A stretch of 64,000 nucleotides of DNA from Magnolia sinica. Its lineage: Eukaryota > Streptophyta > Magnoliopsida > Magnoliales > Magnoliaceae. The stretch covers positions 4,774,001-4,838,000 of the forward strand of contig NC_080577.1 in the NCBI RefSeq assembly GCF_029962835.1, read 5' to 3'. Made by a program: the position numbers and the translations under genes. Positions 9,625 through 64,000 of the stretch are shown here, one piece after another; position 1 is the stretch's first letter; each line of letters begins with the position of its first letter. The notes under the pieces were generated by a model. It saw only the letters and a list, made by a program, of their open reading frames with translations. It ran no database searches and was not told the origin of the DNA.

Positions 9625-10719
9625 ATGGGATGCACTTCTTCCAAACGCATCGATTCGTCCATCGCGGCGGACGTGTACCGTCCGGCCCCGACCAGCTTCG
9701 CCCTCTTCGACATCAACGCCATCGAGGAGCCGTGGCTCATCGCCACCGCCCAGCAGCAACAGCACCACCATGAGAAATCGTCGCACGTGCCGGCTCCCAT
9801 CCTCGAGAAGCTCGACACGTTCGAGCTCGCATCCGACGCGCCGCACTCATGGTCCGAAGTCAGCAAGGCCTTGGAAGATCTCAAGCCCACCTTGAATCAG
9901 AAACCCCCGCCCGCCTCGGAAGCCGACCCGCCGGGCACCAAACCCTACCCCCCGGCGCAAGATAGTCCGACCCTTCAAAAACCTATCATGAAAAAAACCC
10001 AGTCTTTCCACACTCTCGAAGAGCTAGATGCCAAGGTCTCGACGCAGAAGACAGAAACTCGACTTCCGAAACTACCCCCGCCCGAGCACGACGGTTCCAA
10101 GATAGATTCTGAGGGTTTCAAGCCTGTGAGGGAGAACAGCTTCATCATCAGAGACAGGTTGGAGAGGCAGGGGAAGGTCGATCGAGAATCCGAGCCGAGG
10201 CGACTCGGTGGGAGGACTCGTCGCGACCCGCTGGCAGCGTACCCGGAGAAGTGCCCGCCGGGCGGGTCCGACGCTGTGGTTCTGTACACGACCTCTCTGC
10301 GAGGTGTGCGGCGCACGTTCGAAGACTGCCAACGGTTGCGGGCATTGCTGGAAGGGCAACGAGTCGCGGTGGACGAGCGAGACGTGTCGCTGCACGGCGG
10401 CTTCCTTAGCGAGTTGAAGGAGATGGTTGGGGAAGGGGCGGGCGTGCCGAGGCTGTTCTTGAAGGGGAGGTACTTGGGAGGAGTGGAGGAGGTGGTGGAC
10501 CTGAACGAGTCGGGTCGACTCGGTGAGTTGCTGGACTGGGTCGGGGTAGGGAGGGCGCTTGGGAGGAGAGCGTGTGAGGGATGCGGAGGAGCGAGGTTTG
10601 TGCCGTGCTTGGAATGTAATGGGAGTTGTAAGGTGCTGGGTGGGGACGGGAAGCAGACGGTGAGGTGCGCAGTGTGCAACGAGAACGGGTTAGTGCTATG
10701 CCCTCTTTGTCATTATTAG
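9625..10719 (+). CDS. Glutaredoxin-like protein with C-terminal four-CxxC zinc-binding tail
   Basis: This is a single 364-residue open frame with no intron. The start ATG is preceded by a purine-rich GAGAGAG leader and followed by Gly-Cys-Thr-Ser-Ser-Lys, a good N-myristoylation/palmitoylation signal, so the protein probably sits at a membrane. Residues about 8-210 are Pro/Ser/charge-rich and probably disordered, with the SFHTLEELD motif seen in this plant family. Residues about 215-310 form the glutaredoxin-like fold: VVLYTTSLRGVRRTFEDC, later VPRLFLKGRYLGG and a DLNESGRL helix. The usual CPYC/CGFS active site is replaced by SLRGV, as in related plant proteins, so ordinary thiol exchange is doubtful; a cysteine follows in FEDC. 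Residues about 316-362 carry CEGC, CLEC, CAVC and CPLC, like the DnaJ-type zinc finger. The length and order match the 'glutaredoxin family protein' group of plants (Arabidopsis At5g39865-like). The coding DNA is much more GC-rich than its surroundings. The in vivo role is not known to me. Confidence 0.9.
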   Translation: MGCTSSKRIDSSIAADVYRPAPTSFALFDINAIEEPWLIATAQQQQHHHEKSSHVPAPILEKLDTFELASDAPHSWSEVSKALEDLKPTLNQKPPPASEADPPGTKPYPPAQDSPTLQKPIMKKTQSFHTLEELDAKVSTQKTETRLPKLPPPEHDGSKIDSEGFKPVRENSFIIRDRLERQGKVDRESEPRRLGGRTRRDPLAAYPEKCPPGGSDAVVLYTTSLRGVRRTFEDCQRLRALLEGQRVAVDERDVSLHGGFLSELKEMVGEGAGVPRLFLKGRYLGGVEEVVDLNESGRLGELLDWVGVGRALGRRACEGCGGARFVPCLECNGSCKVLGGDGKQTVRCAVCNENGLVLCPLCHY

Positions 10720-11821
10720 GTTTGAAAAGGGCCCGCAGCGCAATCCGGCGCACGGTAGCGTGCACCGTATACGTTTACGGTGAATGTACTGTATTATTGT
10801 TGTTGTATTTTGATAACTGCATAAGAATGAAACCACGGCAAAGAATCTCGTTGCTCTGTTAATTATACAGTAGACTCCTGTGTTGATTTTGTACCGTTTA
10901 GAAATGGTGGTGATTCATCCTCCTCACACGTGGCACTGATGTACATCTGTCCGGACCATTTAAATTGTGGGTCCCACCGTGGATGGAGGTTATATCTAAA
11001 ATCATACTGGTCAAGTAATCCTAATCGTCTAATTTGTGGCTATTAAATGGATGGTTAAAAGTAAAATCATGAACGGTCACAGTTGGAAGGGAAAAGTCAG
11101 ATGGTTAATATCATTTTATCAAAGCAAATTTCCGGTTATTCTCCCTTCACAGTTTAGTCAGAGATGCGGGCGGTCTGGATTGTCTATGGCATGTGTACGT
11201 TTGAAAAGTCACTGTGATCTTTTAAATGGTGCGAAACTAACACGGGATCCGGGTCCGTAATTATATTTGTATATACGTTTTTGTTAGGAGCTATAAGAAC
11301 GGAAAGAGGTACAGACATGATCTCTTCTCTCCGTTGTACAAGTGGAAGGTGATGCATCAATCCGGCCAGTCCATGTCGTCGGACCTATCATGCATGGATG
11401 ATTTTTCAGAAATGTCGTTTGCAAGATAATCCTACCCATCCATCTTCTTCAATTTCCTTTTAGATGACTATGATATCTGAAACTCTTCCATCGGCATCAG
11501 GGGATGCTGAATGGACGGTTTCAAAGGATATGTAAGACTTTATCTTTAGTGGGTCTTCACAAATCAACGGCGTCAATCAAATGTATTTGCATGGAGAGAG
11601 ATAGAAGAGGTAGCTAGAATATATTGAAGAAGCAATTCAGGTCATCATGCGAGCTAGAATGTGCCTGATGAGATCTGGACCATTTGTAAATAGAGCCTAC
11701 CATCAACATGCCTGAAGTCGGCTCTCCTGCTCCTTGTGTGAGAAGAAAAAATGGACGACTATAAAAGATATGGTACGTTCTTGCGGATTTCCTGCAAAAG
11801 GAGTTTGTGCTGGGATGCTTA

Positions 11822-12203
11822 GGTGGGGCCACCATGATGTTGCTGAGAAATCCATCCCGTTAGTATATTTTGAAAGCTCATTTTAAAACATGCCATGAAA
11901 AATAAGGTAAATCCAAAACACGAGAGGAGACTGTGAGGACTCAATGTCTATCATTAATTTGTACAAGGCTAATCAGCTTTTTTGTGTTTTCACTTCATCC
12001 CAGTGGGACTTTACAAACGGTTGTTTGGAGACGCCAAGAAGTTTTCAATGGTAGGTATTTCTTTCCTTTCATCTTTTGTGGCTTACTTGAGATTTGAATA
12101 TCCTTGGTTTTTTTTTTTGTTTTTTTTATAATTGCATGACCTAAAATGAACTTACAAAACGGGGTGGATTTCTCACAAGCATCACGGTGGACCCCACCTA
12201 GCA
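11822..12203. repeat. Foldback repeat, shortened copy
   Basis: The left end has GGTGGGGCCACCATGATG and CTCATTTTAAAACATGCC. The right end has CATCACGGTGGACCCCACCT. The two are in inverted order. The middle keeps the CTTCATCCCAGTGG word. No target duplication was settled. Confidence 0.55.
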
Positions 12204-41156: not shown

Positions 41157-44100
41157 TGTTATCAAAGAAGATGTCTTTAATCTTCTAGGTAGCTCGACCG
41201 GTCGAGCGGGTCGCTAGGCTAGTCGAGACCATCTCGACTCGAAGTTCAGCGAGCACAGATTTTTGGTGTCCGGGCCGCTCGACCAGTCGAGGGGGTCCCT
41301 CGATCAGTCAAGGACTCGGCTCGACCAGTCGAGGTTACGTAGATTCGAGACTGGATCTTGTGCGGATTACGGAAATTTGAGGCGGTTTTGCAAGGGTGCG
41401 AAAGGGAAGTTTCCTAAACTATAAATAGGGGTCCCTAGGGCTATTCTAAAGTATTCTAAAGCTTTCTAAAAAATTTTCAAGGGTTCATAAAGGGTTTAGG
41501 GTTATCAAAGGGTGTAGCAAGGGTGAGATTTGGGGATGTTCGAATCGGGTAAGTCCTCTCTCTTTGTAATTGATGCTTTCATAGTGAAATTCTATCGCTT
41601 TGTGCCGTGGTTTTTTTCCGCAAGGGTTTTCCACGTTAAATCTGTGTGTTCTCTTGTGTTTGCTTGGTGCCATTGTATTATTATCCTAGATCTAGATCTA
41701 TGTGATTCCGCAGCAAAAATCCCAACAAGTGGTAACAGAGCAATTGTTGGGGCACAGATCTGAATCTGAGAGATTAGTAATAATGGGAAGCACTAAGTAT
41801 GAGACTGAGAAATACTTAGGAAAAAATAATTTGAGTTATGGAAGATCAAGATGAAGAGTTTCTTAATCAAGCAAGGCGAAGTGGTGCTCTTGAGGAGCGA
41901 AAGTCTACTATGACTGATGATGATTGCAATACTCTTGATAAGAAGGCTTTATCATCGATCTGTTTATGTCTCACGGATGAGGTTCTCTACAACGCCATGA
42001 GGGAGAAAACTGTGGCTAAGTTATATGCGAAGTTAGAGGATGTCTATGCGAAAAAATCCTCTAAAAATCGCCTACACTTGAAGTGGCATTGGTATAACTT
42101 CAAGATGGCAGAGGGTGGAGATTTGGAGGCTCACATCAGCAACTTTAATAAATTATTTTGCAAATTGCTAGATATAGAGGAAGTGATGAAAGATGAAGAA
42201 CAAGTATGTATCTTGCTGAATTCTCTTCCAGCGTTGTATGAGTCATTCAGGGACACTATGTGTAGCACGAATAAAACCTTAAGTATCGACGTCGTTATCT
42301 TGGCCCTTCAGGGAAGGCTATGAGAAAGCTTAACGTCGATATGAGGATATCTTCTGATGCACTGGTTACAAGGGATATGAATTTTGAACAAGGTACGGGT
42401 TCTTCAGGTTCTAGATCTAAATTCAAGGGTAAGGGCAAGGGAAATGTAAAGTGCTGGAATTGTGGAAAGGAAGGATATGTAAAGAAGGATTGTGAAAATC
42501 CTAAATGGAAGAGAGAAGATTCCGAGGCTTTATATAGGAAGGCCAATGCTGCCACGTCTGATGGATCGAGTGGATGTGATGGTAATATTTTGTCTGTGTC
42601 TACTATCAGGCGGCCATACGATGATCATAAGGACGGGTGGATGCTAGACACAGGGGCATCTTTTCACATGACTTCTCATTGGAGTTGGTTCACCAGATAT
42701 AGGGAGTGCGATGGTGGACAGGTGTTTATGAGCAATGACTTTGCCTGTAATGTTGTGGTTGTTGGTACGGTATGCATCAAAATGTTTGATGAGGTGGAGC
42801 GTACCTTGACTGATGTCAGGCACGTTCCTGATTTGAAGTAGAATCTGATTTCTCTTGGTGTACTTGAGGCAACGGGCTGCAAGTTCACAGGTATTGATGG
42901 TGCTCTTAAAGTATCTAAGGGGGCATATGTAATCATGAAAGCGTAACGACTTGGTAACTTGTACAGGTTGATCGGGAGCACTTCAAAAGGTGGAGCTACA
43001 GCAGATGTAGTGGATTTCACCTCTACACGTGCGTGACATGTTGGGCATGGCCACATGAGCTGATAGGGCAGGAAGGCTGAGACGCGCCGACAAGGATACA
43101 GAGCAGGTGGAGCAGCCACCTGTGAGAAGAATCAGACGGCATAATCACAGGATATCGGCGATATACATAAATGACTCCAATATCGGAGGGGATTCATCTT
43201 CTATTCAGATGACTCTAGGTGATCCCGGTGCTGAGAAGTGAAAGGTGACTATGGGTGATGTGATGAATTCGTTGTACCAGACTGACATATGGGAGCGGGT
43301 AGAGCTTCTAGTGGGCCGGAGAGCGGTTGAATGCAGGTGGATCTTCAGGAGGATACAACATAAATACAGGGCAAGGTTGGTAGGTAAGGGATATGCTTAG
43401 AGAGAAGGGATCGGCTTTTAAAAGATATTTGCGTTGACAGTATAGCAGGTGTCTATTAGATCCGTAATTGTTGCTGGTTGGCCAATGTGATCTTGAGCTG
43501 GAAGGATGAATGCGGATTCTGCACTTCTGTAAGGGAAAGTGAAGAGCAGATCTACATGAAGCAACCAGAGCGGTTCGAAGTTAAAGGGACTGAGAAAAGA
43601 CTTTGCAGGAGGTCGTGGTTCGACCTGTCGCCTAGGCAGTGGTTTGATTCCTTCATGGTAAGTCAGAACTTCATGACATGTAGATCGCCAATTACGACAT
43701 GTTTGAAATCAATATATTGAAGACTCGGTTAAGTGAGACATTCAGGATGAAAGATCAGGGGGCTGCAAAGATGGTTCTCGGCGTTAAGACTGAAAGAGGA
43801 GTAGGCTTTGGTTATCTCGAGCAAAATACCTTGGGTAGGTATTGATCAAGGAGGTGATGGACCATGTAAAGTCGGAGAGCATTCCCTATACGTCTCTCTT
43901 CAAGTTTTTCTTAGGACATATTTCAAAACAGATGAGGAAAACCAGGATATCTCATGAGTCTTATTTGAATGCGGTTGACAGTGTATGCCGTGGTCTGGAT
44001 TAGACCGGTTATTTCACAGGCTATCAGTGTTGTCAGCAAGTACCCCGGTAAGCAATATTGGGTAGCGGTGAGATGGCAAGAAGACTACGTCTTTTCTTTT

Positions 44101-44935
44101 AGAAGACAGGAACAAAGGTGGTTGGGCATGTGGACTCAGATCCAGTAGGCATGTTCACCTAGATCATTCCTGCAGAGAAGTTCAAGTTCTGTATAACTTC
44201 TCTGGGCTTAGCGATGTCAGAAAAGAAGGACAGATTGTGCACGAGAAGCTATAATGTAATGCAGAGATAAGAAAAGAGGTCAAGGAGCTACACGTTTGAA
44301 GATTGAAGACATGGTGAAGATTGTTGTCATAGAAAATGTCTTAAATCTTCTGAGTTGCTCGACCGGTCGAGTGGACTGCTCGACCGATCAAGCGGGTTGC
44401 TAGGGTAGTTGAGGCCATCTTGACTTGAAGTCCAGCGAGCACAGATTTTTGGTGTCTGGGCCGCTCGACCAGTCGAGGGGATCGCTTGACCGGTCGAGGG
44501 GGTCCTTCGACCAGTCGAGGACTCGACTCAACCAGCCGAGGTTCGCAAATTCAAGTTCGGATCTTGTGCGGACTACGAAAATCTGAAGCGGTTTCGCAAG
44601 GGTGCGAAAGGGAAGTTTCCTAAACTATAAATAAGGGTCCCTAGGGCTATTCTAAAATATTCTAAAATTTTCTAAAAGTTTTTCAAGGGTTCATAAAAGG
44701 GTTCTAGGGTTATCAAAGGGTGTAATAAGGGTGAGATTCGAGGTTGTTCGAATTAGGTAAGTCCTCTCTCTTTGTAATTGATGCTTTCATAGTGGAATTC
44801 TGTTACTTTGTGCCATGATTTTTTCCTGCAAGGGTTTTTCACGTTAAATCTGTGTGTTTTCTTGTGTTTGTTTGGTGCCATTGTATTGCTATCCTAGATC
44901 TAGATCTGTGTGATTTCACAGCAAAAATCCCAATA
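41157..44935 (+). mobile_element. Ty1/copia LTR retrotransposon fossil
   Basis: LTRs lie at 41,157-41,727 and 44,322-44,935. They start TGTTATC/TGTTGTC and end in CCCAACA/CCCAATA. A perfect 5-bp target duplication, TTAAA, flanks the element (41,152-41,156 and 44,936-44,940). A primer-binding site, TGGTAACAGAGC, follows the 5' LTR and fits initiator-Met tRNA. Parts in order are gag (about 41,840-42,320), a CCHC zinc knuckle (around 42,450-42,500), an aspartic-protease start with LDTGASFHMT (around 42,640-42,670) and decayed pol remains to about 43,450. This gag-protease order and style resemble the Tork/TNT1-like copia group. It is broken in several places and shorter than a whole element. The LTRs are still clearly alike, so it is of moderate age. 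Confidence 0.88.
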
Positions 44936-52701: not shown

Positions 52702-53241
52702 GAGAACGGATTGGCTGCTCACCCTGCTACCAGCCCAGTGGCTGGTGGTCGGCGATCTGTGGGCTCCAACATGATGTATGTGTTTCATCCATTCCGTTCA
52801 TCCATTTTTACAGATAATTTTAAGGTTTGGTACCAAACATTTAGAGGAATATAAATCTCAGGTGGACCACACCACAATAAAACAATAGTGATTGGATATC
52901 CACCACTAAAATCCTCCTAAGACCAATGTACTGTTTATTTGACATCCAATCTGTTGATTAGGTAATACAGACCCATATGAAGGGAAAAAAACAAAGATCA
53001 GCATCATCCAAAACTTTTATGGCACACAAAAAGTTTTTAATTGTCAACATTCATTCAACACTGTTTCTTGTAATGTGGTTCACCTGAGATTGGTATATAA
53101 CTAATTTTTGGTCTCATATTATAAAATTATCTAGAAAAATAGATGGACGGCATGGATGAAACACATACATCATGGTGGGGCCCACAGAGTACCGACCATC
53201 AGTCATTGGCTGCTGGCAGGGGGAGTAGCCAATCCGTTTCC
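52702..53241. mobile_element. Foldback Mutator-like MITE with perfect 9-bp target duplication
   Basis: The left end is GAGAACGGATTGGCTGCTC and the inverted right end is GAGTAGCCAATCCGTTTCC. Next inward come the CCAGCC.AGTGGCTGGTGG hairpin word, CATGATGTATGTGTTTCATC and CAGGTGGACCACACCACA, all mirrored in the right half. It is flanked by CATCATGAA at 52,693-52,701 and 53,242-53,250, a perfect nine-base duplication. There is no ORF of significance. At 540 bp, with arms spanning most of its length, it would fold into a long hairpin. Confidence 0.88.
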
Positions 53242-53250
53242 CATCATGAA

Positions 53251-54111
53251 GTTCCGTGCGAACGTACGTCTATTGGAGCATGGCACCAACGTCTAATGAT
53301 CAGGAACGTTGATTCGGTAGTGCATCAGGTGGATGGGTGGATATGATTTATTCACGTGGTGGTCCACACAACAATCCCGATCAACATGTAACTGTATTCG
53401 TTAAACTGAGGGGAATGATCCCATACGTTCAAACGTGACTTCCCAGACGTTTGAGCTGCGTGGGATCTGTAGTGACGTAGCTATTCCATCCAAACCGTCC
53501 ATCGGATGAATCTCATCATCTTACTCCCATATACTAAAAATCATCCTAACCCAAATTTCATGTCGGCCACACCACAGTGAAATTCAGTGAAATACGGAGG
53601 GCAGTGGGGAGAGGGAGGTACGGTGGTGCGACATCCTACTTTGGAGAAAATGACCACTGTAGACAAAACCTTTTACCCAGCGGTTTTTACGAAGGAAGGA
53701 ATACAAACTTAAGTTACCAACTTAGGTTAGCACGTGCGGACAGCGTCTTTGAGGACGAAACTACCCCTCCTTTTTACCGCCGTTGCTTTTCCACTCCCTC
53801 ACTTTCCTCTTTCCATTTTGGAAAAAATGAAGTCGAAAACTCCTGCACTGCTGCGTTTCCTCTCCCTCCTTTTCACCACTGCTTTTCTTCTCCCTTTCAA
53901 CTGTTTGCTTTTCCTCTTCCATTCCACTGCTGCTTCACTGCCGTTGCTTTCATCCCTTTTTTTACCGTTAGAAAGACAAAAAAAACCCTTTCTGTGGGCC
54001 CCCCCGATCAACATTTTGTCTTCTTCTGAAAATGGTCGGTCTAATGAAGAAAGCACATACCACAGGTATATTTTAAACTCAGTTGGACCCACATTGAATG
54101 TATTTAGTATA
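53251..54111. other. Spacer between two foldback elements, no gene
   Basis: CT-rich plus-strand DNA at 53,770-54,000 gives overlapping open frames of low-complexity Phe/Ser/Leu-rich sequence that I do not regard as coding. No known repeat was recognised apart from short foldback-like scraps. Confidence 0.4.
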
Positions 54112-54649
54112 GGAAACAGATTGGCTACTCCCCCTAACACCAGCCCTGTGGCTGGTGGTCGGTGCTCTGTGGGCCCCACCATGATGTATGTGTTTCATCC
54201 ATTTCGTTCATCCATTTTTAAAGTTCATTCCAGGACTTTATCCTAAAAATAAGAGGGATATAAATCTTAGATGTACCACAATACAGGAAAACAATAGTGA
54301 TTGGATATCCATCATTTAAATCCTCCTGAGGCCCACTGTATTGTTTATCTGAAATCCAATCTGTTTATTACGTCATAAAGACCCAGATGAAGGGTAAAAA
54401 CAAAGATCATCTTGATCTAATACTTTTATGGCCACCAAAAGTTTTTAATGGTCGATGTTCATTAAACACTGTTTCCTGTAATGTGGTTCAATTAAGATTA
54501 GGATATACCTCATTTTTTGTATAATATTGTAAAATGATATATAAAAATAGATGGACGGCATGGTTGAAACACATACATCATGATGGGGCCCACAGAGCAC
54601 CGAACACCAGCCATTGGCTGGTGGCAGGGGGAGTAGCCAATTTGTTTCA
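54112..54649. mobile_element. Foldback Mutator-like MITE with 8/9 target duplication
   Basis: The left end GGAAACAGATTGGCTACTCC and right end GGAGTAGCCAATTTGTTTC are inverted copies, followed inward by CCAGCC...GGCTGGTGG and GCTCTGTGGGCCCCACC on both arms. The flanks are TTTAGTATA (54,103-54,111) and TGTAGTATA (54,650-54,658). It is the same subfamily as 52,702-53,241, only about 870 bp away. Confidence 0.82.
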
Positions 54650-54650
54650 T

Positions 54651-55092
54651 GTAGTATATCCACGCCGTCCATCCGTTTTTCTATCTAATTTAAGGGGTTG
54701 AGCCCGAAATTGAAGCATATGAAAATATGAAGTGGATCATACCACGGGAAACAGTGAGTATAATGATTTTCTAGTTTGCCCCGCTGATTTTCTAGTTTGT
54801 TCCACTCAATTTAATATTTGCTGGAAGTGCATGGGTGGATGTATAGTATACTTTGTAATTTTGGTGGATGATGAAATGAACTTTATACTTTGTCCCATTG
54901 TATTTTCAGTTTGTCTCGCTCAATTTCCAGTTTGGCCCGCTCAATTTCATTTCCAATTTGGCCCGCTCAATTTCCAGTTTGGCCCGTAGTATATCCACGC
55001 TGTCCATCCATTCTTCCATCTAATTTAAGCGGTTTAGCCCCAAATTGAAGCATATCAAAAGATCAAGTGGATCATACCACGGGAAACAGTGG
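54651..55092. repeat. Direct duplication with 335-bp offset at the left edge of the MULE
   Basis: The segment starting GTAGTATATCCACGCCGTCC and ending ACCACGGGAAACAGTG (54,651-54,757) recurs at 54,986-55,092 with about a dozen differences. The DNA between includes the left 20-21-bp repeat arrays. Confidence 0.75.
54764..54986. repeat. Left 20-21-bp repeat arrays of the MULE
   Basis: Two small clusters of the unit (CTAGTTTGCCCCGCTGATTT type at 54,764-54,812; CAGTTTGGCCCGCTCAATTT type at 54,901-54,986) hold about three and five copies. Orientation is opposite to the arrays at 58,960 and 63,335. Confidence 0.75.
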
Positions 55093-55557
55093 TTTTTCTT
55101 GTCGTTGCTCAATTTCAACGTGATTTCCATGAGTATGCACAGTAATTTAGAATTTTTCATCTCAATGATTTTTAGAGTTTCACGAATATACGTGTTCTTA
55201 AATGTAAAAATTACTTCATCTATTTAATTTATCCTGATTTAAGATAATATGCCATAAGACCCATATTTGTCATTTCAAATTTACGAAGTAGCCTTTATGA
55301 ACTCATCAACCATAACACTATCATTGTTTGTGAATATTAAATCACCAATGTATAAGGATGTCAATAATACATCACCACGATCATTGTGTTAACATGGATA
55401 ACATGCTCATAGGGATAACTTGTTTGTTTGTTATCAAACCTATTCATAAGATCATAGATACATTGTTTTCAATTATATCTGATTTTGTCCACTATGTTTA
55501 TCTTGTGAATTTTATGTTTGATATGTTTTTCAATTCATCTCTGCAGGCGACAAATAT

Positions 55558-58397
55558 TCTGTCGTAATCTCCAACCCAACATTTAGGTGTACACTGACAT
55601 GGTGGTTTGACAAGGTGAAGGGTGGAGTAGAGAAGCACGATAGTCGGCTAAATTTGTTTAGGCAATCTCCTTTCTCGTTTCTATTATATATTACATCCTT
55701 TAGATTTATAGGGGCTTTATTTCACATTCTTCTTATAAGATACAAAGGTGATCTAGTATTTGAGATCAGGGGGAGGCGATTGCAGTTTACCGAGATGGAC
55801 TTCGCCCTCATTACCGGTCTTAAGATTGGAGATCTTACTGTTCCAAATATTTCTTGCACTACGAATACATTAAGAGACAAATACTTTAAAGAATATCCAG
55901 TATTAAAGAAGCACATAATGGACGTATTTGAGAGATTAGTTGACACCAATAACCATGAGGACGTCGTGAAGGTTGCCCTACTTCTAGTTGTGGAGTACTT
56001 TCTTAGGGGAAACGAACCGAAAACCAGGTGCAACATGAATTATATTCATCTGGTGGACTCGCTAGATGATTTCTATAGGTATCCCTTGAGTAGTTTGGGA
56101 TACAATACAATGTCGCAAGGAATCGAATCTGCCGTTACCGCATCAAGTTCCCCTCGGTACACTGTGTATGGTTGCGTCCTTCCTTTACAAGTAAGAACAC
56201 CTTTTATTTTCTATATGTTTTTCCTTTATAATTAATTTTAAATTTTTAACCGGATGCAATTTCATTCTAACAAGTATGAGCAGTAGAGATATTACCGGCC
56301 CTACAAGAATGTGTTGTTTCATATGTTCCCCATCAAATTCCACGCTTCATTCAATATCGAGGCTGGAAGGGTTGGAGGTACAAGAGAATACATGTTATTT
56401 TCGAGAGTAGAGCTGTAAGTTTATATATATCTCTTCCATTTATATTGCTTAACTTGACATATACGTTTTTATATTTAACATTACTCTTTGTTCTTTTACA
56501 GACATCAGTAGTAATGAAATTAGAACCAACACTACGAGAATGGGAAACGGATGCCGTTCGCTCGGTGCATGACAGTTTCCAGGTGAGATGTTATGAAAAA
56601 TGAACTATATTTTATTTACCATTATTAAGTTATCCTTACTCTGACATATCCATGTATACATTTTGCAGCTCACTGAGACCTAGGAAGATGATGAGGAGGA
56701 TGAGGAGGGTAATGAGATTGATCATGAGGAGGATGACGAGTCAGATGATAACAATGAGAAAGGCGTGGAGGGAGAGGGACCGAGGGTGGGTATTATGAAG
56801 AATGTTCTTTTTATGGAGGAATGTCGGATTGAGAGAGAAGAGTTAAAGAAGGAGAGAGAGGAATTGAAGAAGGAGAGGGACGAATTGAGAAAAGAGAGGG
56901 AAGAAATAAGGAGGAAAGAAGCAATGTTTGATGAGAGGGATACCTTACTGAAAGAGAAAGAACAATTGAAGAGGGAGAAGGATTTATTTTTTGAGGAGAT
57001 GGAAAAGTTAGCGAATGAGAGGGAGGAGTTTAATAAGGAGAAGGAAGGTAGTTATACACAGAAGAGACGTTTTGTGATGGAGGAGGGTAAGGAGTTGAGG
57101 AAGGGAGGGGAACTAAATAATATTGACGATAAAGAACTTGGATACGAGGATCTGGATGTGTAATTGTATAGTAATGCCAAAGGTAATGTATTGAATGCAT
57201 CCACTTCTCATCCCGTTTATGAAAGAAGAACCAAAAGGATACCGAAGCCATCATATTACAAGATGTCGCCGTACTTGTCCCTGTCTGCATTCGACACAAC
57301 CCATGAGGCGGTTCCCGAACCCAACCAAGTAACCGCTTTTGCTACTTCTCCGATACCATTTCCTCTACATATGCATCCTTTCAGAGCATTATCCGCGTAT
57401 GAGGTGAAAGAGGTAGAGGACTGGTATGAAGCAAACAAGGACATGCCAGCATGAAAATGGTCAGTACGATATGGATGAAGGATGTGGGTTGATAGCGAGG
57501 TAAGCATTACTAATTTATTCTCTATATGCATTGATTGACATATAATTAATTGTTATATTAATCTATAACTAAATTGTACTATCCTATTGATTAGGCTATC
57601 GACACATACATCGAGTTCCTTGAGAAAAGGCATAACGACCTTTCAATAATATATCGTCAGGATTGCAAGTTCTGTCCTACGTATTTTACGGTAACTGTTT
57701 ATTTCGTCAATCTTTAATCTGTTTGAAGATTTTATTTTCTTACATGTATTGAACTTTGATCATGTTTGTAACAGTAAAGCCTTGAGGGGTGTTTGCCGAT
57801 TTTGATCGCATACTGGGCCTCGAAATCGGCATCAGAACGGGTCTCGCTAATAAGCCAGCTGACCACGGCTTACGCAATTGCCAAGCAATGAGATAAACCA
57901 TACGCCAAAGCGATTTGGTGTTATGAACGGGTAATGCACTTGTCACAGAATATCATCTCTTACTGTTATGTATTCTATCATGTTTTGACTAATATATTAT
58001 TTTGTGAATCATGGACAAGTCTATGCGCCCATAAATCATGAAAATTCACATTGATTTTTGTTGGTTATCTAGAGTAAGAGAAATCGTTGTTGTGGATAGC
58101 TTATGCACAAATGTAATACCGAAGTATAAGCAGCAGATGAAGAACATGACTGATGCACTCCCCATGCTCTTTCATGCCACTGGAGACAGCACTGCGCTTG
58201 AAGGAAAGAATTGGTCCATCAGAGTGGATGAATCTGCGCCGAAGCAGCATAATGGTTATGACTACGGCATATTCGTAATGAAATTCATCGACATTTTGTG
58301 TAGTGGTCTCACCTTGGCGGGAACAGACATGCAAAAATTCACCACCGATTGGAGGAAGTCAATAGCATATGATTGCTTGTCTCTAGTCCGTAGATAA
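55558..58397 (+). pseudogene. Decayed DUF1985/ULP1-like cysteine protease gene of the MULE
   Basis: Pieces in order: (1) 55,615-56,190, a DUF1985-type domain with SRLNLFRQSPF, then FEIRGRRLQFTEMDFALITG and LKIGD; (2) about 56,286-56,416, a following exon-like block with LPALQECVVSYVPHQIPRF; (3) 56,690-57,163, an acidic run then a long Glu/Lys/Arg coiled coil (EREELKKEREELKKERDEL); (4) 57,164-58,397, remains of the C48 (ULP1/SENP) peptidase. The peptidase His context is visible as NHENSH, followed by a stop where Trp is expected. The Asp context is EIVVVDS in a shifted frame. The Cys context reads GYDYGIFVMKF, so the catalytic Cys of the usual YDCGxF motif is Tyr. ULP1 proteases remove SUMO; this copy could not. 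No ATG was found for the first piece, which is probably reached by splicing. Introns cannot be fixed because of the decay. Confidence 0.75.
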
Positions 58398-58949
58398 TAT
58401 TTGTCCAGGGCATGGGAAGATTTTTGGAAAGATGTATTATACGGAGTATTAATTTCATTGTTAAATATACTTTGTACATTGTCATCCCGTTCATGTACCA
58501 TTTCATGTTATATACATTGTATGAGGTTTACAGTAATCATGGAGTGACAACAAATTTTCATGTCTGTGCATTTCAGTTCGAGTTCCTTCTCTAATCATGA
58601 TGGCCTTGGGAGAGTTGATCCAAGGGATGGGTTGACTGCAAAAGGGTCGATTAAAACTATATTGGGTTATCTTACTGGTTCTGAAATCATTATGCCAGCT
58701 TGGTTTTACACAGTAATCTTTTGCAATCAGCCCAATATTGTGTTTCTTTTCTTTTCTGCTCAATTTTTTTTATTTTTTAACATTACTCTTAATTTCCTTT
58801 GTTCCATTGTCATCTTTGTATCATCGTGTAATTGTCCAGCCTTAGTTTTATGCTCAGGTGCTCCTGGCAACTTGGTTTTACACAGTAGATTTTGAAGAGG
58901 GCTCCTTATGCTTGTGTTGAAAACTCAGACTATCATATCAGTGCCAATA

Positions 58950-59050
58950 TATTATAACATAAGAAATTAAGTGAGGCAATATAAGAAATTCAGTACGACA
59001 AACTGAAAATGAGCGAGGCAACTTAGAAATTGAGCAAGACAACCAAAAGA
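58950..59050. repeat. Central 20-21-bp repeat array of the MULE
   Basis: About four copies (AAATTAAGTGAGGCAA, AAATTCAGTACGACAAACTG, AAATGAGCGAGGCAAC, AAATTGAGCAAGACAAC) lie between the two convergent genes, in the same orientation as the right-end array. Confidence 0.7.
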
Positions 59051-59314
59051 TTATTACATGAGAGGAAATATATTACAATATATATCATACAAAACACTAA
59101 ATAAATTACAAAGTATGTTACACATCAGGTATGAGAAACTTGCACGTCCAGCGATTATGCCCGGATTGTTTGCATCAACCGCACTTTAATGTTTTTGATT
59201 CTTCTCAACGCGAGGGAATTCTTAACTTTTTTGGTCTTCCAAATGGCCTCTTCTGTCCCAGGGGTTTAATTTTCGCACAATACTACTTGAAGCCATCTGT
59301 AATCTCCCATTCGC

Positions 59315-61526
59315 TCATGTCACGTACTGGGTACACCGATTCGTTATATGTGCTCAAGTAATTTTGCGATGTGTAGAATGGGGAGCAGTACGAGTAATGA
59401 AGAAGATTGTGGTTTATACATGCGGACAAGACATGCATATAAGGCTACCCCTTCATGTCAAACTCACAACATATACATGAAAGCGAGCTGAGCTTGACTG
59501 TATCATTATAATCTCCCATGACGTAGTACTCATCTCGAGAAATCGGATGACAGCGAACATCTCGCGCCTTCTGTATAAGATCCTTCAACTGTTGCTCCAC
59601 CCATGGTGTCAACGGACGTACAAATGAGGCTGCAGATTCTCTTCTCTTGTAAAACAATTCTTGTATCTTACATCTTACGGCCTCTATCAATTTAGTAACA
59701 GGGTATTCCCGTGCTTCTTTGAAGAGGGCGTTAACACACTCAGATATGTTTGTGGTGACCAAGTTGAATCTTTTACCTGAAAGTGCGAAGATGCCCATCT
59801 TTCGTAGCCGATTTCTGTCAGCCATGCATGTAATGGGGGGTTGGCCATTTTAATATCATGCATTAATTTTTCAAATTCAGCCCTCCTGCAAGTCTTAACT
59901 GCCCGCCAGTAGTATATCTCCAACGACTTGTCTTTAAAGGTGTCCACCAAGTTTCTATAAATATGGTATGCACAATACCTATGAATTGCATGTGGGAATA
60001 CTTGGGGAACCTCTTTCATTAAACCTTTATGTCGATCGAAAATAATCACAAGACCCTCCAGATACCCTAACGCATCGTTAAGGTAGGTAAGGAACCAATT
60101 CCAACTCATACTGTTCTCTGATTCCCCGATGCCAAACGCAATTAGAAATATATGATTGTCCCCATCCAAGGCCGTGGCGATGAATAGAACACCCTTGTAT
60201 TTACCCTTTAAGTGTGTCCCGTCAATGTCTAATACCTAATACCCTCCGCATACAATTCTGAAAACTTTGAACGCATTGTCCGAGCGCTACAAAACACCTC
60301 TCAAACCTCCAAGTCTCTTGGTTAACAAGCACGACAGTCACCGTCCCCGGGTTGACCATCCTCAACTCATGCAAATACAAGGGGAGTTGATTGTAAGAGT
60401 CTTCGTAACACCCCATCACCTGCTTAATTGTAAGCTCCTTAGCTTTCCATGCCTTTCTATAACTGATAAGAATATTATATTTCTCTTGCATAGCGAAGAT
60501 AATATCACGTGGCCTCAAACCTAACCGTTGCTCATTGCGGCTAACAACCAGATCACATGCTAACTTACTGCTTGCTTGCCGGTGATCATTCTTCATCCAC
60601 GACATGCCGCACGTGTGTTTTGACGTATAATTCCGTATCTTGAATATCCCGGTATCATTCACCCGAGTTGCGTCAACCCTTCAGTCGCATTTATCTTCAA
60701 AGCACACCACGTTAAATCTGCTAGAATTTGAGTACAGTACCTTATACTGGAATTTATTGTGAATTGCAAATTGGCTTAGAACATGCTGGCATCAACTCTT
60801 GTCCTTAAATGTTTGTCCAATAGCTATATCGATCAGTTCACTCAACGAATCTGTATATTCTAGCAGTACTGCATTGGTGAATACATCATCATCAAATGGC
60901 ACGGGAACTTGACGAGTGATGAAGTTTCCGCTTTTAGCAAGGTTTGGAAGCGGAATGTCGCTTACACGTACAGCTCGGGTGGTGGATGATGATGGCAGAT
61001 CTGCTGTTGTTGCTAAAGGCGGTGCCATATACTCATAAGTGAGGTTAAGGTCACGTGCCCAGCTGACTTGGCTACTCACAAAGTTTGATGTTTGAGGCGG
61101 CTCGGGCAGTTGATCGTTGCTCACTATCACTTGTAATGGAGATGCCCTGTATTCAAATTTCACGCCATGCTCCTCAGGCAAGCTGTCTATGCGTGTTGTC
61201 CAATTAATGTGTTGCGTTGTCTCGATGACTAAGGGAATGAATTTATCCGAATGCTCCAACTGTGTTACCAGGAACTCTCGCACGTCATCGTCGTCTGCGA
61301 TTACGATTGGAGGGATTGATTCATTTGTGCAAGGATACATTACTTTCATCCTAATATCACAATCTGTTGGTTGACTCTTAATAATCCTATAAATTCTAGA
61401 TAGAAGCTCCTCATACGTAGTCTCGACACGTAGCGAAAAAGTTTTCGAATCCCCACCAGTGTACGAGTATCGCTTGTTCTCATATTCAATCTTCCCGCCA
61501 TAACAGCAGATGATTCTCGTAGACAT
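59315..61526 (-). pseudogene. Decayed mudrA-like (MULE) transposase gene
   Basis: The frame at 60,792-61,526 begins MSTRIICCYGGKIEYENKRY, a PB1-like N-terminal domain typical of plant MURA proteins, starting at an ATG. Next (60,222-60,690) is the MuDR DNA-binding region with CDWRVNATRVNDTGIFKIRN and SKHTC. The DDE core follows: first Asp in VLDIDGTHLKGKYKGVLF (about 60,225), second in IIFDRHKGL, then HRYCAYHIYRN and the Glu in LTEIGYERW. All three catalytic acidic residues are still visible. The C-terminal SWIM zinc finger appears as CICCEFDMKG, then a stop where Leu is expected, then PYMHVLSAC. Damage seen: a stop just before the first Asp motif, a frame shift after the Glu region (near 59,770), the stop in the SWIM finger, and a break between the first two parts. 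It would have cut and joined the element's ends; it is now inactive. Confidence 0.82.
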
Positions 61527-63334
61527 TATCTGAAAACCAATACAATGACATTATATTAGTGAATCATTATGCAATGGAAGCTTGCCATAAGACAAAACTC
61601 AATTAAATAATAGAGGAGCAAGTACTCACGTTCCATAATAAATGACAATGATACATAGCTTAAGGAAATAAAATGTATGCAATGCGTTAAATTTTTTTAA
61701 ATAAACAAGAAGAGCTTATATGGATTACAAATTCAGAGATAAGAATGATTTCATGTGGTGCTTATTAAATTCAGTGATGCTATCTATCATGGAATATCCA
61801 TATAGTCTTCTATTTTAACAAGGGACAATTCTATGATGGCCTAGTACACTTTCAAAAAAAATATACGAACCTAACATTTCTACATGAGGATTTGGGTTTA
61901 AAATATGTTAAACTTACATATATTTTCAAAGCTAGTCTCAACAAGCAGAGTCTAGGGTTGAAATTTCACCTAAAATTTCACTATTAATTATTTCTAACTG
62001 TTAGAGAATACGAGAGATGTTGTTTCTGATCAACGAGATGTATTTGGCGATTCGAAATACAAAATCCTAGTCTCAATATGCTCCATTTAGAGCTGAAATT
62101 TTTTTCTCAAACCTTTATACATTCGCTTCTAATTAGTGCTAATTGCTAAAAGTTATGAGAAATATCATCTCTAACTAATGAGATTTCTTAGTGAATTTTC
62201 ATTTTTAACTCCTAGTGCGGGTTTTAAGTGTAGGGAGTGCTTAAATTTGATCTAATGTACAATGTAATGGGTAAGGAACTGCTTACAATGCCTAAACTCA
62301 TTTCACCTACTGTCTACTGAGTGTCTTTGCAATGTCATTTCAACTAAGAAAAATTATGGTAAATATCAAATCCTAAGTTGCTAAAAAGTTCATTGGAGGT
62401 CAAGTTCAAGGAACGTTTTTGTTTAGTCTAATATACATCATAGCAGTTTGTCTCCCATAATTCCTAAGTTTAGTTCTAAGTTCAAACAATCATTCTAAAA
62501 GTTTTTAATGGGGACCTAGGTTTTGTTCCTAGGTTTCATGGTTATGCAGGCAATCTCCTAGAGAACTTAAAATATTGAGTCTATATCTTCTCAAATGTCA
62601 TAATTCCAAAGTAATTCCAACCAAGTTTGAATGACTATTCTAATGATTTCAAGGGAACCTAAGTTTCATTTCTACGTTCAAACAACTAAAATTGAAATTT
62701 CCTAAGGGTCCTAAACTTTTGCGTCTCTAGGTTCGCAATTATACTTCTTCTGAGGGAATTCTATATAGGTTCAATTAGCTATTCTAGTAACTGGAGCAGC
62801 ATGTGGCTTACATTGAGCACCCGGTAAAGCTCATATGTCATGGGTGGATGTTATGCATCATGGCATCATGGTACCCACGTACATCCCTTAAAATTTGGCC
62901 AGATTGCTCTTTAAATTGTACACATTATCAAATCATGATATTAAACATCAACACATGAATTTAACATGAATTCTTATAATTCCTCTAAGCTCAAATGACG
63001 GCCCACAAACGTGTCATATCAATCTCAAGTATGGTTAAGCAATTTGGAATATTTAAAAGTTCATTCAACATTCGACAAATATTCCACATTGTATGGTTTA
63101 TAAGATAAAATAAAATGTAATTTAACGGTTCATGTCATATCTACTAGAAATATACCCATATTTAAGCAATCACAAATGTATCATAAGGGGATACAAGGCT
63201 AAATTCTCTACACATGGTTAATTAGAATTAGAGTAATAAGAATTTAAGCATTACATCATATATGTTAATACTAAATATCAAGCACTTGATAAATTTGAGC
63301 GAGCTTCAGATAAAATGGAATAAACCTTAACTAA
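61527..63334. other. AT-rich non-coding part of the MULE
   Basis: This stretch lies between the transposase start and the right array. It is AT-rich, with no ORF of note and no recognised repeat. It probably includes the transposase promoter and internal MULE spacer. Confidence 0.45.
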
Positions 63335-64000
63335 AATTAAGCGCGGCAAACATGGAAATGATTAAGGCAAACATGAAAATTCAGCGACGCAACTTATAAA
63401 TTGAACGAGGCAAACTAGAAATTCAGCGACGTAGCCTATAAATTAAACGAGGCAAACTAGATATTCAATGAGGGAAAAGCGAAAGTTCAGCGAGATAGGT
63501 TAGAAATTGGGCGAGGCAAACTAGAAATTGAATGAGGGAAAAATGAAATCGATCGAGGGAAGTTAGAATTTGAGCGACGGAAAAGAAATAATTGAGCAAG
63601 GGAAGCCTGAAAATTTAGTTACGCAACCTAGATTTTGAACGAGGTAAACTAGAAATTCAGCGAGGGAAGAGGGAAAATTGAGCGAGGTAAAGTATATATT
63701 AAGCGAGGCAAACTGACATTTGAGCGAGGAAGCTGAAATTGAGCATGGCAAACTAAAAATTGAGCGTGGCAAACTAGAAATTAAGCAACGCAAACATGAA
63801 ATTGAGTGAGACAAGAATGAAATTCATTGAGGCAAATATGAAATTTATCAATGCAAACATTAAATTGAGTGAGCCTAGCATGAGATTGAGTTGGGCAAAC
63901 ATTAAATTGAGCAATTCTACCATGAAATTGAGTTGAGGGAACATTGAATTGAGCAAGCCTAGCATGAAATTGAGTTGGGCAAACATTGAATTGACCGAGC
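63335..64000. repeat. Right-end array of a 20-21-bp repeat, about 30 copies, running off the window
   Basis: Successive units follow AATTGAGCGAGGCAAACTAG with much variation. The cluster at 63,780-64,000 favours AAATTGAGT(G/T)..GCAAACAT. The mean period is close to 20.5. On the minus strand the 21-base period yields a false open frame with a seven-residue repeat (63,774-63,986). Confidence 0.85.

What the first reader, a model, noticed from the sequence alone, without database searches (positions are those of the whole stretch)
54764..64000. Two-gene ULP1-carrying MULE bounded by inverted arrays of one short repeat
A mudrA-type transposase and a DUF1985/ULP1 protease gene face each other, and the flanks carry the same 20-21-bp unit in opposite orientation. 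Gene capture of ULP proteases by Kaonashi-type MULEs is known. The use of an expandable short tandem repeat as the inverted terminal region, rather than a simple long TIR, is what deserves attention.
Basis: partly seen in the sequence, partly recalled or inferred. Interest (0 to 1): 0.7.

Follow-up and report, generated by a model that had tools for sequence, protein, structure and literature searches.

The report
Magnolia transposon with apparent anti-silencing arrays
A large family of jumping genes in a magnolia genome carries a transposase, a DUF1985/ULP protease gene and arrays of a short repeated DNA word that changes from lineage to lineage, which looks like the self-protecting anti-silencing system known from Arabidopsis VANDAL elements, here in a plant outside the eudicots.

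Summary
The genes and the opposed arrays are real, but the arrays are not the ends. The element runs from 53,644 to 64,867 (11,224 bp, past the window), with ~150-bp terminal inverted repeats (TIRs, 90% identical) and a perfect 10-bp target duplication; five of six other TIR pairs have perfect 9-bp duplications. The two genes form one unit: 55 of 56 DUF1985-transposase pairs within 20 kb are convergent. The 21-bp unit sits in all three non-coding regions and recurs upstream of DUF1985 in 28 of 29 fetched relatives, always in one orientation. More distant DUF1985 lineages carry altered or different units (21-bp variant, 23-bp unit); each unit has 10,000-12,000 near-matches and associates with its own lineage (small numbers, capped lists). 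Best explanation: a VANC/KIU-type anti-silencing system in which the DUF1985-ULP protein recognises its own array. That function is inferred; co-divergence of the transposase is a confounder. The host is Magnolia sinica, a magnoliid (three scaffold lengths match the published table exactly), so a system described from eudicots reaches beyond them. The window copy itself is decayed.

The parts
53634..53643 (.). left copy of the 10-bp target site duplication TCCTACTTTG (right copy at 64,868-64,877, beyond the window = C5:4838868-4838877)
   Evidence: 10 of 10 identical
53644..53799 (+). left terminal inverted repeat, starts GAGAAAATGACC; partner 64,719-64,867 beyond the window
   Evidence: 90% identity over 156 columns, E 3e-56; 39 other scored places out of 1186 candidates, some of them the two ends of one element
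54763..54986 (+). left tandem array upstream of the DUF1985/ULP gene, 7-8 units of ~CTCAATTTCCAGTTTGGCCCG in two blocks
54986..55091 (+). 106-bp repeat after the left array; first copy at 54,651-54,756, 91% identical
   Evidence: the same arrangement at other places in the list
55548..56190 (+). DUF1985 exon of the ULP gene (splice borders judged by eye)
   Evidence: PF09331 E 3e-12 for the open frame 55,522-56,235; 1513 candidate places genome-wide, 150 scored
56831..56909 (+). coding 21-bp tandem repeat in the ULP gene (heptad EREELKK)
58035..58397 (+). Ulp1 (Peptidase_C48) open frame; Tyr at the catalytic Cys position and a degenerate His segment in this copy
   Evidence: PF02902 E 4e-9; alignment with 14 other copies
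58956..59051 (-). middle array between the two 3' gene ends, 3-4 units, same orientation as the right array
   Evidence: 2 or more units on the 3' side in 27 of 30 transposase loci, this one included
59445..61526 (-). mudrA-type transposase gene, broken into ORFs 59,445-59,849, 59,687-60,235, 60,222-60,680 and 60,792-61,550
   Evidence: PF10551 E 2e-20, PF00872 E 6e-13; ORFs; several other copies keep about 809 codons open
63329..64000 (-). right tandem array upstream of the transposase gene, 35 units in all, continues to about 64,125

Best explanation
A TIR-MULE family of Magnolia sinica that carries its own sequence-specific anti-silencing system. Shown: a Mutator-like element with ~150-bp TIRs and 9/10-bp TSD, a transposase gene and a convergent DUF1985-Ulp1 gene; arrays of a ~21-bp unit in its three non-coding regions; units that differ between DUF1985 lineages of one genome. 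Inferred: the DUF1985-ULP protein binds the units of its own family at high local density, mostly spaced by two helical turns, and removes or blocks silencing (DNA methylation) at both genes, with the ULP part perhaps stripping SUMO from silencing factors. Arrays and protein shift together, so each lineage de-represses itself, and non-autonomous relatives that keep the arrays would benefit too. The window copy is a decayed member.
For: TIRs and TSD. Convergent pairing 55 of 56. Four or more units upstream of DUF1985 in 29 of 30 loci including the window copy, all in one orientation; two or more on the transposase 3' side in 27 of 30, 26 of these 27 with one orientation only. Right arrays of 35, 42 and 43 units in 3 of 3 elements examined; 354 of 432 neighbouring spacings (110 bp or less, 13 array stretches) are exactly 21 bp. 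Lineage-specific units: DUF1985 identity to the window copy 77% (L087), 65% (L088), 38% (L089), 30% (L090), over partial exons, with units ~CTGAATTTCTAGTTTGCCCCG, CTCAATTTCTAGGTTCCCTCG (~120 copies) and a different 23-bp unit in L089 and L090. Exact units within 6 kb: lineage D has its own unit in 11 of 13, the window-type in 1 of 7, the 23-bp in 0 of 22; lineage E has its own in 9 of 62, the others in 0 of 19 and 0 of 45. Catalytic His, Asp, Gln in 14 of 14 and Cys in 11 of 14 copies chosen for lack of stops. Median DUF1985 dN/dS 0.33-0.44. Precedent: VANC proteins carry DUF1985, bind short motifs forming tandem repeats in VANDAL non-coding regions and cause hypomethylation (PMC5735166, passages); Ulp1-carrying VANC genes (KIU) are said to do this for KIU-VANDALs (review PMC13317346, passages).
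Against: No binding, methylation, small-RNA or expression data. The transposase diverges along with DUF1985, so the motif could belong to the transposase instead. The 23-bp period of lineage E is not two helical turns and its units lie in both orientations. Whether lineage-E or lineage-D elements carry ULP, TIRs or the same transposase was not tested. Most listed clusters of exact units have no listed DUF1985 gene within 25 kb: 31 of 35 window-type clusters lack a window-lineage gene and 56 of 76 23-bp clusters lack a lineage-E gene, though the gene lists are capped at about 150. dN/dS of 0.33-0.44 is only moderate purifying selection. The DUF1985 fold model failed (pLDDT 39). One DUF1985 locus (L065) and three transposase loci (L034, L040, L041) showed no unit.
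Confidence: 0.6

Rival explanations
1. The arrays are subterminal binding sites of the transposase, as in CACTA or hAT elements (recalled), and serve transposition; the ULP gene is a passenger.
For: The outer arrays have their nearest edges 0.6-1.0 kb inside the TIRs, in inverted orientation; transposase and motif co-diverge, as DUF1985 does.
Against: A third array lies between the genes, far from both ends; the element already has long TIRs; the outer units read the same way relative to each gene, as promoter elements would; the proteins shown to read such arrays in VANDAL MULEs are DUF1985 proteins.
Confidence: 0.2
2. The arrays are neutral satellite-like expansions without function that spread with the element.
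For: Units are divergent (TRF matches 64-84% in the right array) and number varies from 4 to about 120.
Against: The same unit recurs in three separate non-coding regions of one element, with fixed orientation in 29 of 29 array-bearing DUF1985 loci, and a conserved core down to 65% protein identity. Neutral arrays would not be expected to stay matched across separated regions.
Confidence: 0.12
3. One reading: the short tandem array itself is the inverted terminal region of the element.
For: Opposite orientation of the arrays.
Against: ~150-bp TIRs with a 10-bp TSD lie outside both arrays in the window copy, and TIR-bounded elements with 9-bp TSDs exist elsewhere.
Confidence: 0.01
4. The DUF1985-ULP protein is an ordinary transcriptional activator of its own element through the arrays, with no role against DNA methylation.
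For: Arrays stand upstream of both genes.
Against: Does not explain the array between the 3' ends; for VANC21 the authors hold that the primary effect is removal of silent marks, not activation (PMC5735166, passage).
Confidence: 0.07

Closest known systems
Arabidopsis VANDAL elements with VANC (VANDAL21/VANC21, VANDAL6/VANC6)
   Same: Mutator-like element; DUF1985 protein; [quoted passage not shown] related families carry different motifs; tandem repeats also inside the DUF1985 gene (PMC5735166, passages).
   Different: Arabidopsis VANDALs lack TIRs or have short degenerate ones; but the same paper says that some VANDAL-clade elements of other Brassicaceae do have TIRs and lists 46-174 bp for the group (PMC6446971, passages), so TIRs alone do not set the Magnolia family apart. 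VANC21/VANC6 motifs are 8-9 bp; here the repeat unit is 21 or 23 bp and the bound core is unknown. Anti-silencing is shown there, only inferred here.
Kaonashi / KIU-carrying MULEs
   Same: Ulp1-domain gene in reverse orientation to mudrA; KIU genes are described as Ulp1-carrying VANC genes that recognise motifs in non-coding regions of their own kind and hypomethylate them (review PMC13317346, passages, citing Sasaki 2022, which is not held).
   Different: Described as non-TIR MULEs of Arabidopsis with three genes; here TIRs, two genes seen (a third not looked for), and a magnoliid host.
ULP-containing MULEs of grapevine and melon
   Same: ULP region with mudrA also inside TIR elements, TSD of 9 nt where found in grapevine (PMC2528002, passages).
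   Different: The grapevine text has no occurrence of 'tandem' or 'subterminal', so no arrays are described there in these words; the melon paper was not read.

Membership tests
Mutator-like element (MULE), TIR type | MULE transposase domain | tested here: met
   PF10551 E 2e-20
Mutator-like element (MULE), TIR type | long terminal inverted repeats | tested here: met
   156-column TIR, 90%; 39 other scored places
Mutator-like element (MULE), TIR type | target site duplication of about 9 bp | tested here: met
   10 of 10 bp in the window copy; 9 of 9 in 5 of 6 other TIR pairs, 8 of 9 in the sixth, which sits in poly-T
VANC/VANDAL-type anti-silencing system | DUF1985 protein encoded in the element | tested here: met
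   PF09331 E 3e-12
VANC/VANDAL-type anti-silencing system | short motif in tandem repeats in the non-coding regions | tested here: met
   the bound core is not known
VANC/VANDAL-type anti-silencing system | motif differs between related DUF1985 lineages | tested here: met
   confounded by transposase divergence
VANC/VANDAL-type anti-silencing system | protein binds the motif and causes sequence-specific loss of methylation | not testable with these tools
   needs binding and methylation data
VANDAL clade of MULEs | transposase falls in the VANDAL clade | not tested
   no tree with named MULE transposases was built
Kaonashi (KI) MULE | Ulp1 domain gene in reverse orientation to mudrA | tested here: met
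Kaonashi (KI) MULE | no terminal inverted repeats | tested here: not met
   long TIRs present, so not filed as Kaonashi proper
Active ULP protease | His-Asp-Gln-Cys catalytic residues | tested here: inconclusive
   not met in the window copy; Cys kept in 11 of 14 other copies, His/Asp/Gln in 14 of 14; the 14 were chosen from 150 hits for lack of stops; residue roles recalled

The most novel reading that the evidence does not exclude
Sequence-specific anti-silencing by DUF1985-ULP proteins is older than the eudicots. In a magnoliid it runs in TIR-MULEs at very high copy number, and one genome holds several distinct protein-array codes (window-type 21 bp, GGTTCCC-type 21 bp, 23 bp), each with about 10,000 or more target units, so that anti-silencing specificity has diversified within one genome along with the arrays.
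Probability: 0.45. Interest if true: 0.8.

Novelty: new variant of a known kind. Interest (0 to 1): 0.6.

Why it matters
If the mechanism holds, it supports an origin of VANC-like anti-silencing before magnoliids and eudicots parted (barring horizontal transfer), shows it at work in elements with long TIRs, and offers a natural series of DUF1985 proteins with matched target arrays. Such a series would make it directly testable how these proteins read DNA and how target specificity changes, which is also of use for locus-specific demethylation in plants.

Tried and rejected
Arrays as termini: rejected by TIRs and TSDs outside them. Two separate insertions: not supported, see convergent pairing. 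The left array with its 106-bp flanking repeats as an independent repeat family: at first suggested, dropped because arrays recur upstream of DUF1985 in 29 of 30 loci. A fold of DUF1985 as evidence of DNA binding: model useless (pLDDT 39), no fold search made. CpG decay at the unit's CG as a sign of past methylation: in the window's right array CG 12, TG/CA 10, other 13 of 35 units; too weak to use. Sasaki 2022 could not be read; what I recall of its abstract (origin in eudicots, helical periodicity) is recall only; its title, with 'in eudicots', was seen in a reference list. The 2026 review places the Ulp1 capture at the separation of monocots and eudicots and names ULP MULEs of rice, so a magnoliid member is not against what is known. 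No paper joining magnoliids with this system was seen in the listings; that is not proof of absence.

Limits of the counts: protein and family searches score about 150 of 819 to 1513 candidates, those nearest the query, so absence of a partner in a list is weak and the pairing count covers only those lists. The motif-lineage matrix uses only the first 100 listed exact places of each unit (97 for the 23-bp unit, its last three, on C8, left out), hence only the contigs those cover. For lineage D I used the hits on C1-C7 with 79% identity or more; for lineage E the hits on C1-C7, with two fragments of split genes (C1:41114941, C4:73015697) left out; the window lineage's 'close' group is the first 22 rows, so that one 91% copy ranked lower (C14:14868651) fell into the other group. 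Cells are small. The earlier test with 25-kb windows gave 20 of 76 clusters of the 23-bp unit near lineage E (rotation mean 0.30, max 9) and 1 of 76 near the window lineage; window-type clusters 4 of 35 near the window lineage (mean 0.14, max 3) and 0 of 35 near lineage E. Pairs dropped from dN/dS: 21 of 153 in clade A by the filters on dN and dS; copies with stop codons were kept with those codons skipped; the 711-nt stretch includes some intron. TIR ends L085 and L086 were fetched but had no partner to test.

Full report
What is there. The window lies at C5:4774001-4838000 of a 1,838,573,281-base genome in 127 contigs. Lengths of three of its contigs, C1 141,926,363, C8 92,164,922 and C17 73,752,208, equal exactly the published maximum scaffold length, N50 and N90 of the Magnolia sinica assembly (PMC10999834, passages incl. 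Table 1). The published total (1,839,595,854 in 130 scaffolds) is 1.02 Mb and 3 scaffolds larger, about the size of the two organelle genomes given there (856,922 and 160,070 bp). The host is thus very probably this magnoliid.

True ends. Extending the assembly to the right shows inverted repeats at 53,644-53,799 and 64,719-64,867, 90% identical, starting GAGAAAATGACC, directly flanked by TCCTACTTTG on both sides. The element is 11,224 bp. A search with the left TIR gave 1186 candidate places, 40 scored, this one included. Six other elements with both TIRs in that list were checked by fetching their flanks: perfect 9-bp duplications in five (17.7, 35.9, 20.9, 8.7 and 33.6 kb), 8 of 9 in the sixth, which lies in a poly-T stretch. 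At C13 an inner left TIR shares the right end and has the same left flank, so a local duplication is likely there; it is counted once.

One element, two genes. The DUF1985 and transposase exons were each searched in the whole genome (150 scored of 1414 and 1513 candidates). Within 20 kb the two lists form 55 convergent pairs (the window's included), 1 divergent, 0 tandem, against about 0.5 pairs of any orientation expected by chance. Distances from gene to TIR are nearly constant: 19 transposase-TIR distances lie between 4,500 and 4,759 bp and 10 of 11 DUF1985-TIR distances between 2,243 and 2,359 bp, the eleventh being the far end of the 8.7-kb element (other copies only). That 8.7-kb element on C3 keeps TIRs, a 9-bp TSD and both ULP-gene exons, with no transposase hit in the scored list and only 3.4 kb between the ULP exon and the far TIR; it looks like a ULP-only derivative.

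The arrays. Unit about CTCAATTTCNNGTTTGCCNCG. Left array 7-8 units, middle 3-4, right 35. Among 30 fetched DUF1985 loci (window copy included), 29 have 4 or more units within 1.5 kb upstream (6 or fewer mismatches), all in the same orientation relative to the gene; L065 has none. Among 30 transposase loci (window copy included), 27 have 2 or more units within 1.5 kb on the 3' side, 26 with that orientation only, L029 with both, L034, L040 and L041 with none. Right arrays of two other elements hold 42 and 43 units. Of 432 neighbouring spacings of 110 bp or less in 13 array stretches, 354 are exactly 21 bp, two turns of B-DNA (recalled). Read towards the gene, the unit has the same direction upstream of both genes, so the inverted layout goes with the convergent genes.

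Lineages. A second clade of DUF1985 copies (L064-L066, L068-L071; 82.7-86.9% identical to the window copy) has larger left arrays: 15-29 units in six, none in L065. At 77% (L087) there are about 25 units ~CTGAATTTCTAGTTTGCCCCG, at 65% (L088) about 120 units CTCAATTTCTAGGTTCCCTCG over 2.5 kb, and at 38% and 30% (L089, L090) a different unit of 23 bp, about ACAACCACGATCCATATAACATG, in both orientations. With up to 2 mismatches the window-type, GGTTCCC-type and 23-bp (21 bases of it) patterns have 12,022, 10,060 and 10,271 places, the reversed controls 2 each. Among exact places, the GGTTCCC unit lies within 6 kb of 11 of 13 lineage-D genes and of none of 8 + 38 window-lineage genes or 45 lineage-E genes; the 23-bp unit lies near 9 of 62 lineage-E genes and near none of 8 + 55 + 22 others; the window-type unit near 2 of 3 close relatives, 2 of 20 further ones, 1 of 7 lineage-D and 0 of 19 lineage-E genes (only contigs covered by the first listed places). 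Many clusters of exact units have no listed gene near them (31 of 35 window-type, 56 of 76 23-bp within 25 kb), which the capped gene lists may or may not explain.

The ULP protein. In 14 other copies, chosen from the 150 scored hits for lack of stop codons, His, Asp and Gln of the C48 site are kept in 14 of 14 and the Cys in 11 of 14; the window copy has Tyr for Cys and a degenerate His segment. Median dN/dS of the DUF1985 exon is 0.42 and 0.44 within two clades and 0.33 between them. The gene also has a coding 21-bp repeat (heptad EREELKK). The window's transposase is split over several frames, while several other copies keep about 809 codons open.

Mechanism. [quoted passage not shown] motifs of related VANCs differ, and VANC genes have their own internal repeats (PMC10398659, passages). 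Ulp1-carrying VANC genes (KIU) are reported to act likewise (PMC13317346, passages). The Magnolia element meets the sequence-level expectations of such a system that I tested. Binding and demethylation are inferred.

Novelty. ULP in MULEs, also TIR-MULEs, is known (PMC2528002, passages), TIRs occur in some VANDAL-clade elements (PMC6446971, passage), and anti-silencing with KIU is reported in Arabidopsis. New here, as far as the searches named in Tried and rejected show, are the system's anatomy in a magnoliid and several distinct array codes in one genome outside the eudicots. The Sasaki 2022 paper, the closest work, could not be read, so any claim of being first outside eudicots is provisional.

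Noticed in passing
window 54,099-54,662 and about 52,705-53,240: Two related MITE-like elements with long inverted arms (77% between parts of them); the first is nested inside the MULE between the left TIR and the left array (the second's borders judged by eye).
   Followed up: partly
window 54,651-54,756 and 54,986-55,091: 106-bp direct repeat bracketing the left array, 91% identical; the bracket recurs at other copies found with this stretch. Its origin is unexplained.
   Followed up: partly
G000 C3:14864340-14873034: 8.7-kb TIR- and TSD-bounded derivative with the ULP gene exons but apparently without the transposase.
   Followed up: partly
L088 (C14:3705000-3708100): 2.5-kb array of about 120 units directly upstream of a DUF1985 exon with 65% identity to the window's.
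   Followed up: yes
window 56,831-56,909: Coding 21-bp tandem repeat (heptad EREELKK) in the ULP gene, of varying length between copies, like the internal repeats reported in VANC genes.
   Followed up: partly
window 42,000-44,300: Remains of a Copia-like retroelement (a CCHC zinc-knuckle is readable near 42,440); judged by eye.
   Followed up: no
G000 C13:21587960-21621640: Two left TIRs with identical 20-bp left flanks and one shared right end, which suggests a local duplication of an element.
   Followed up: no
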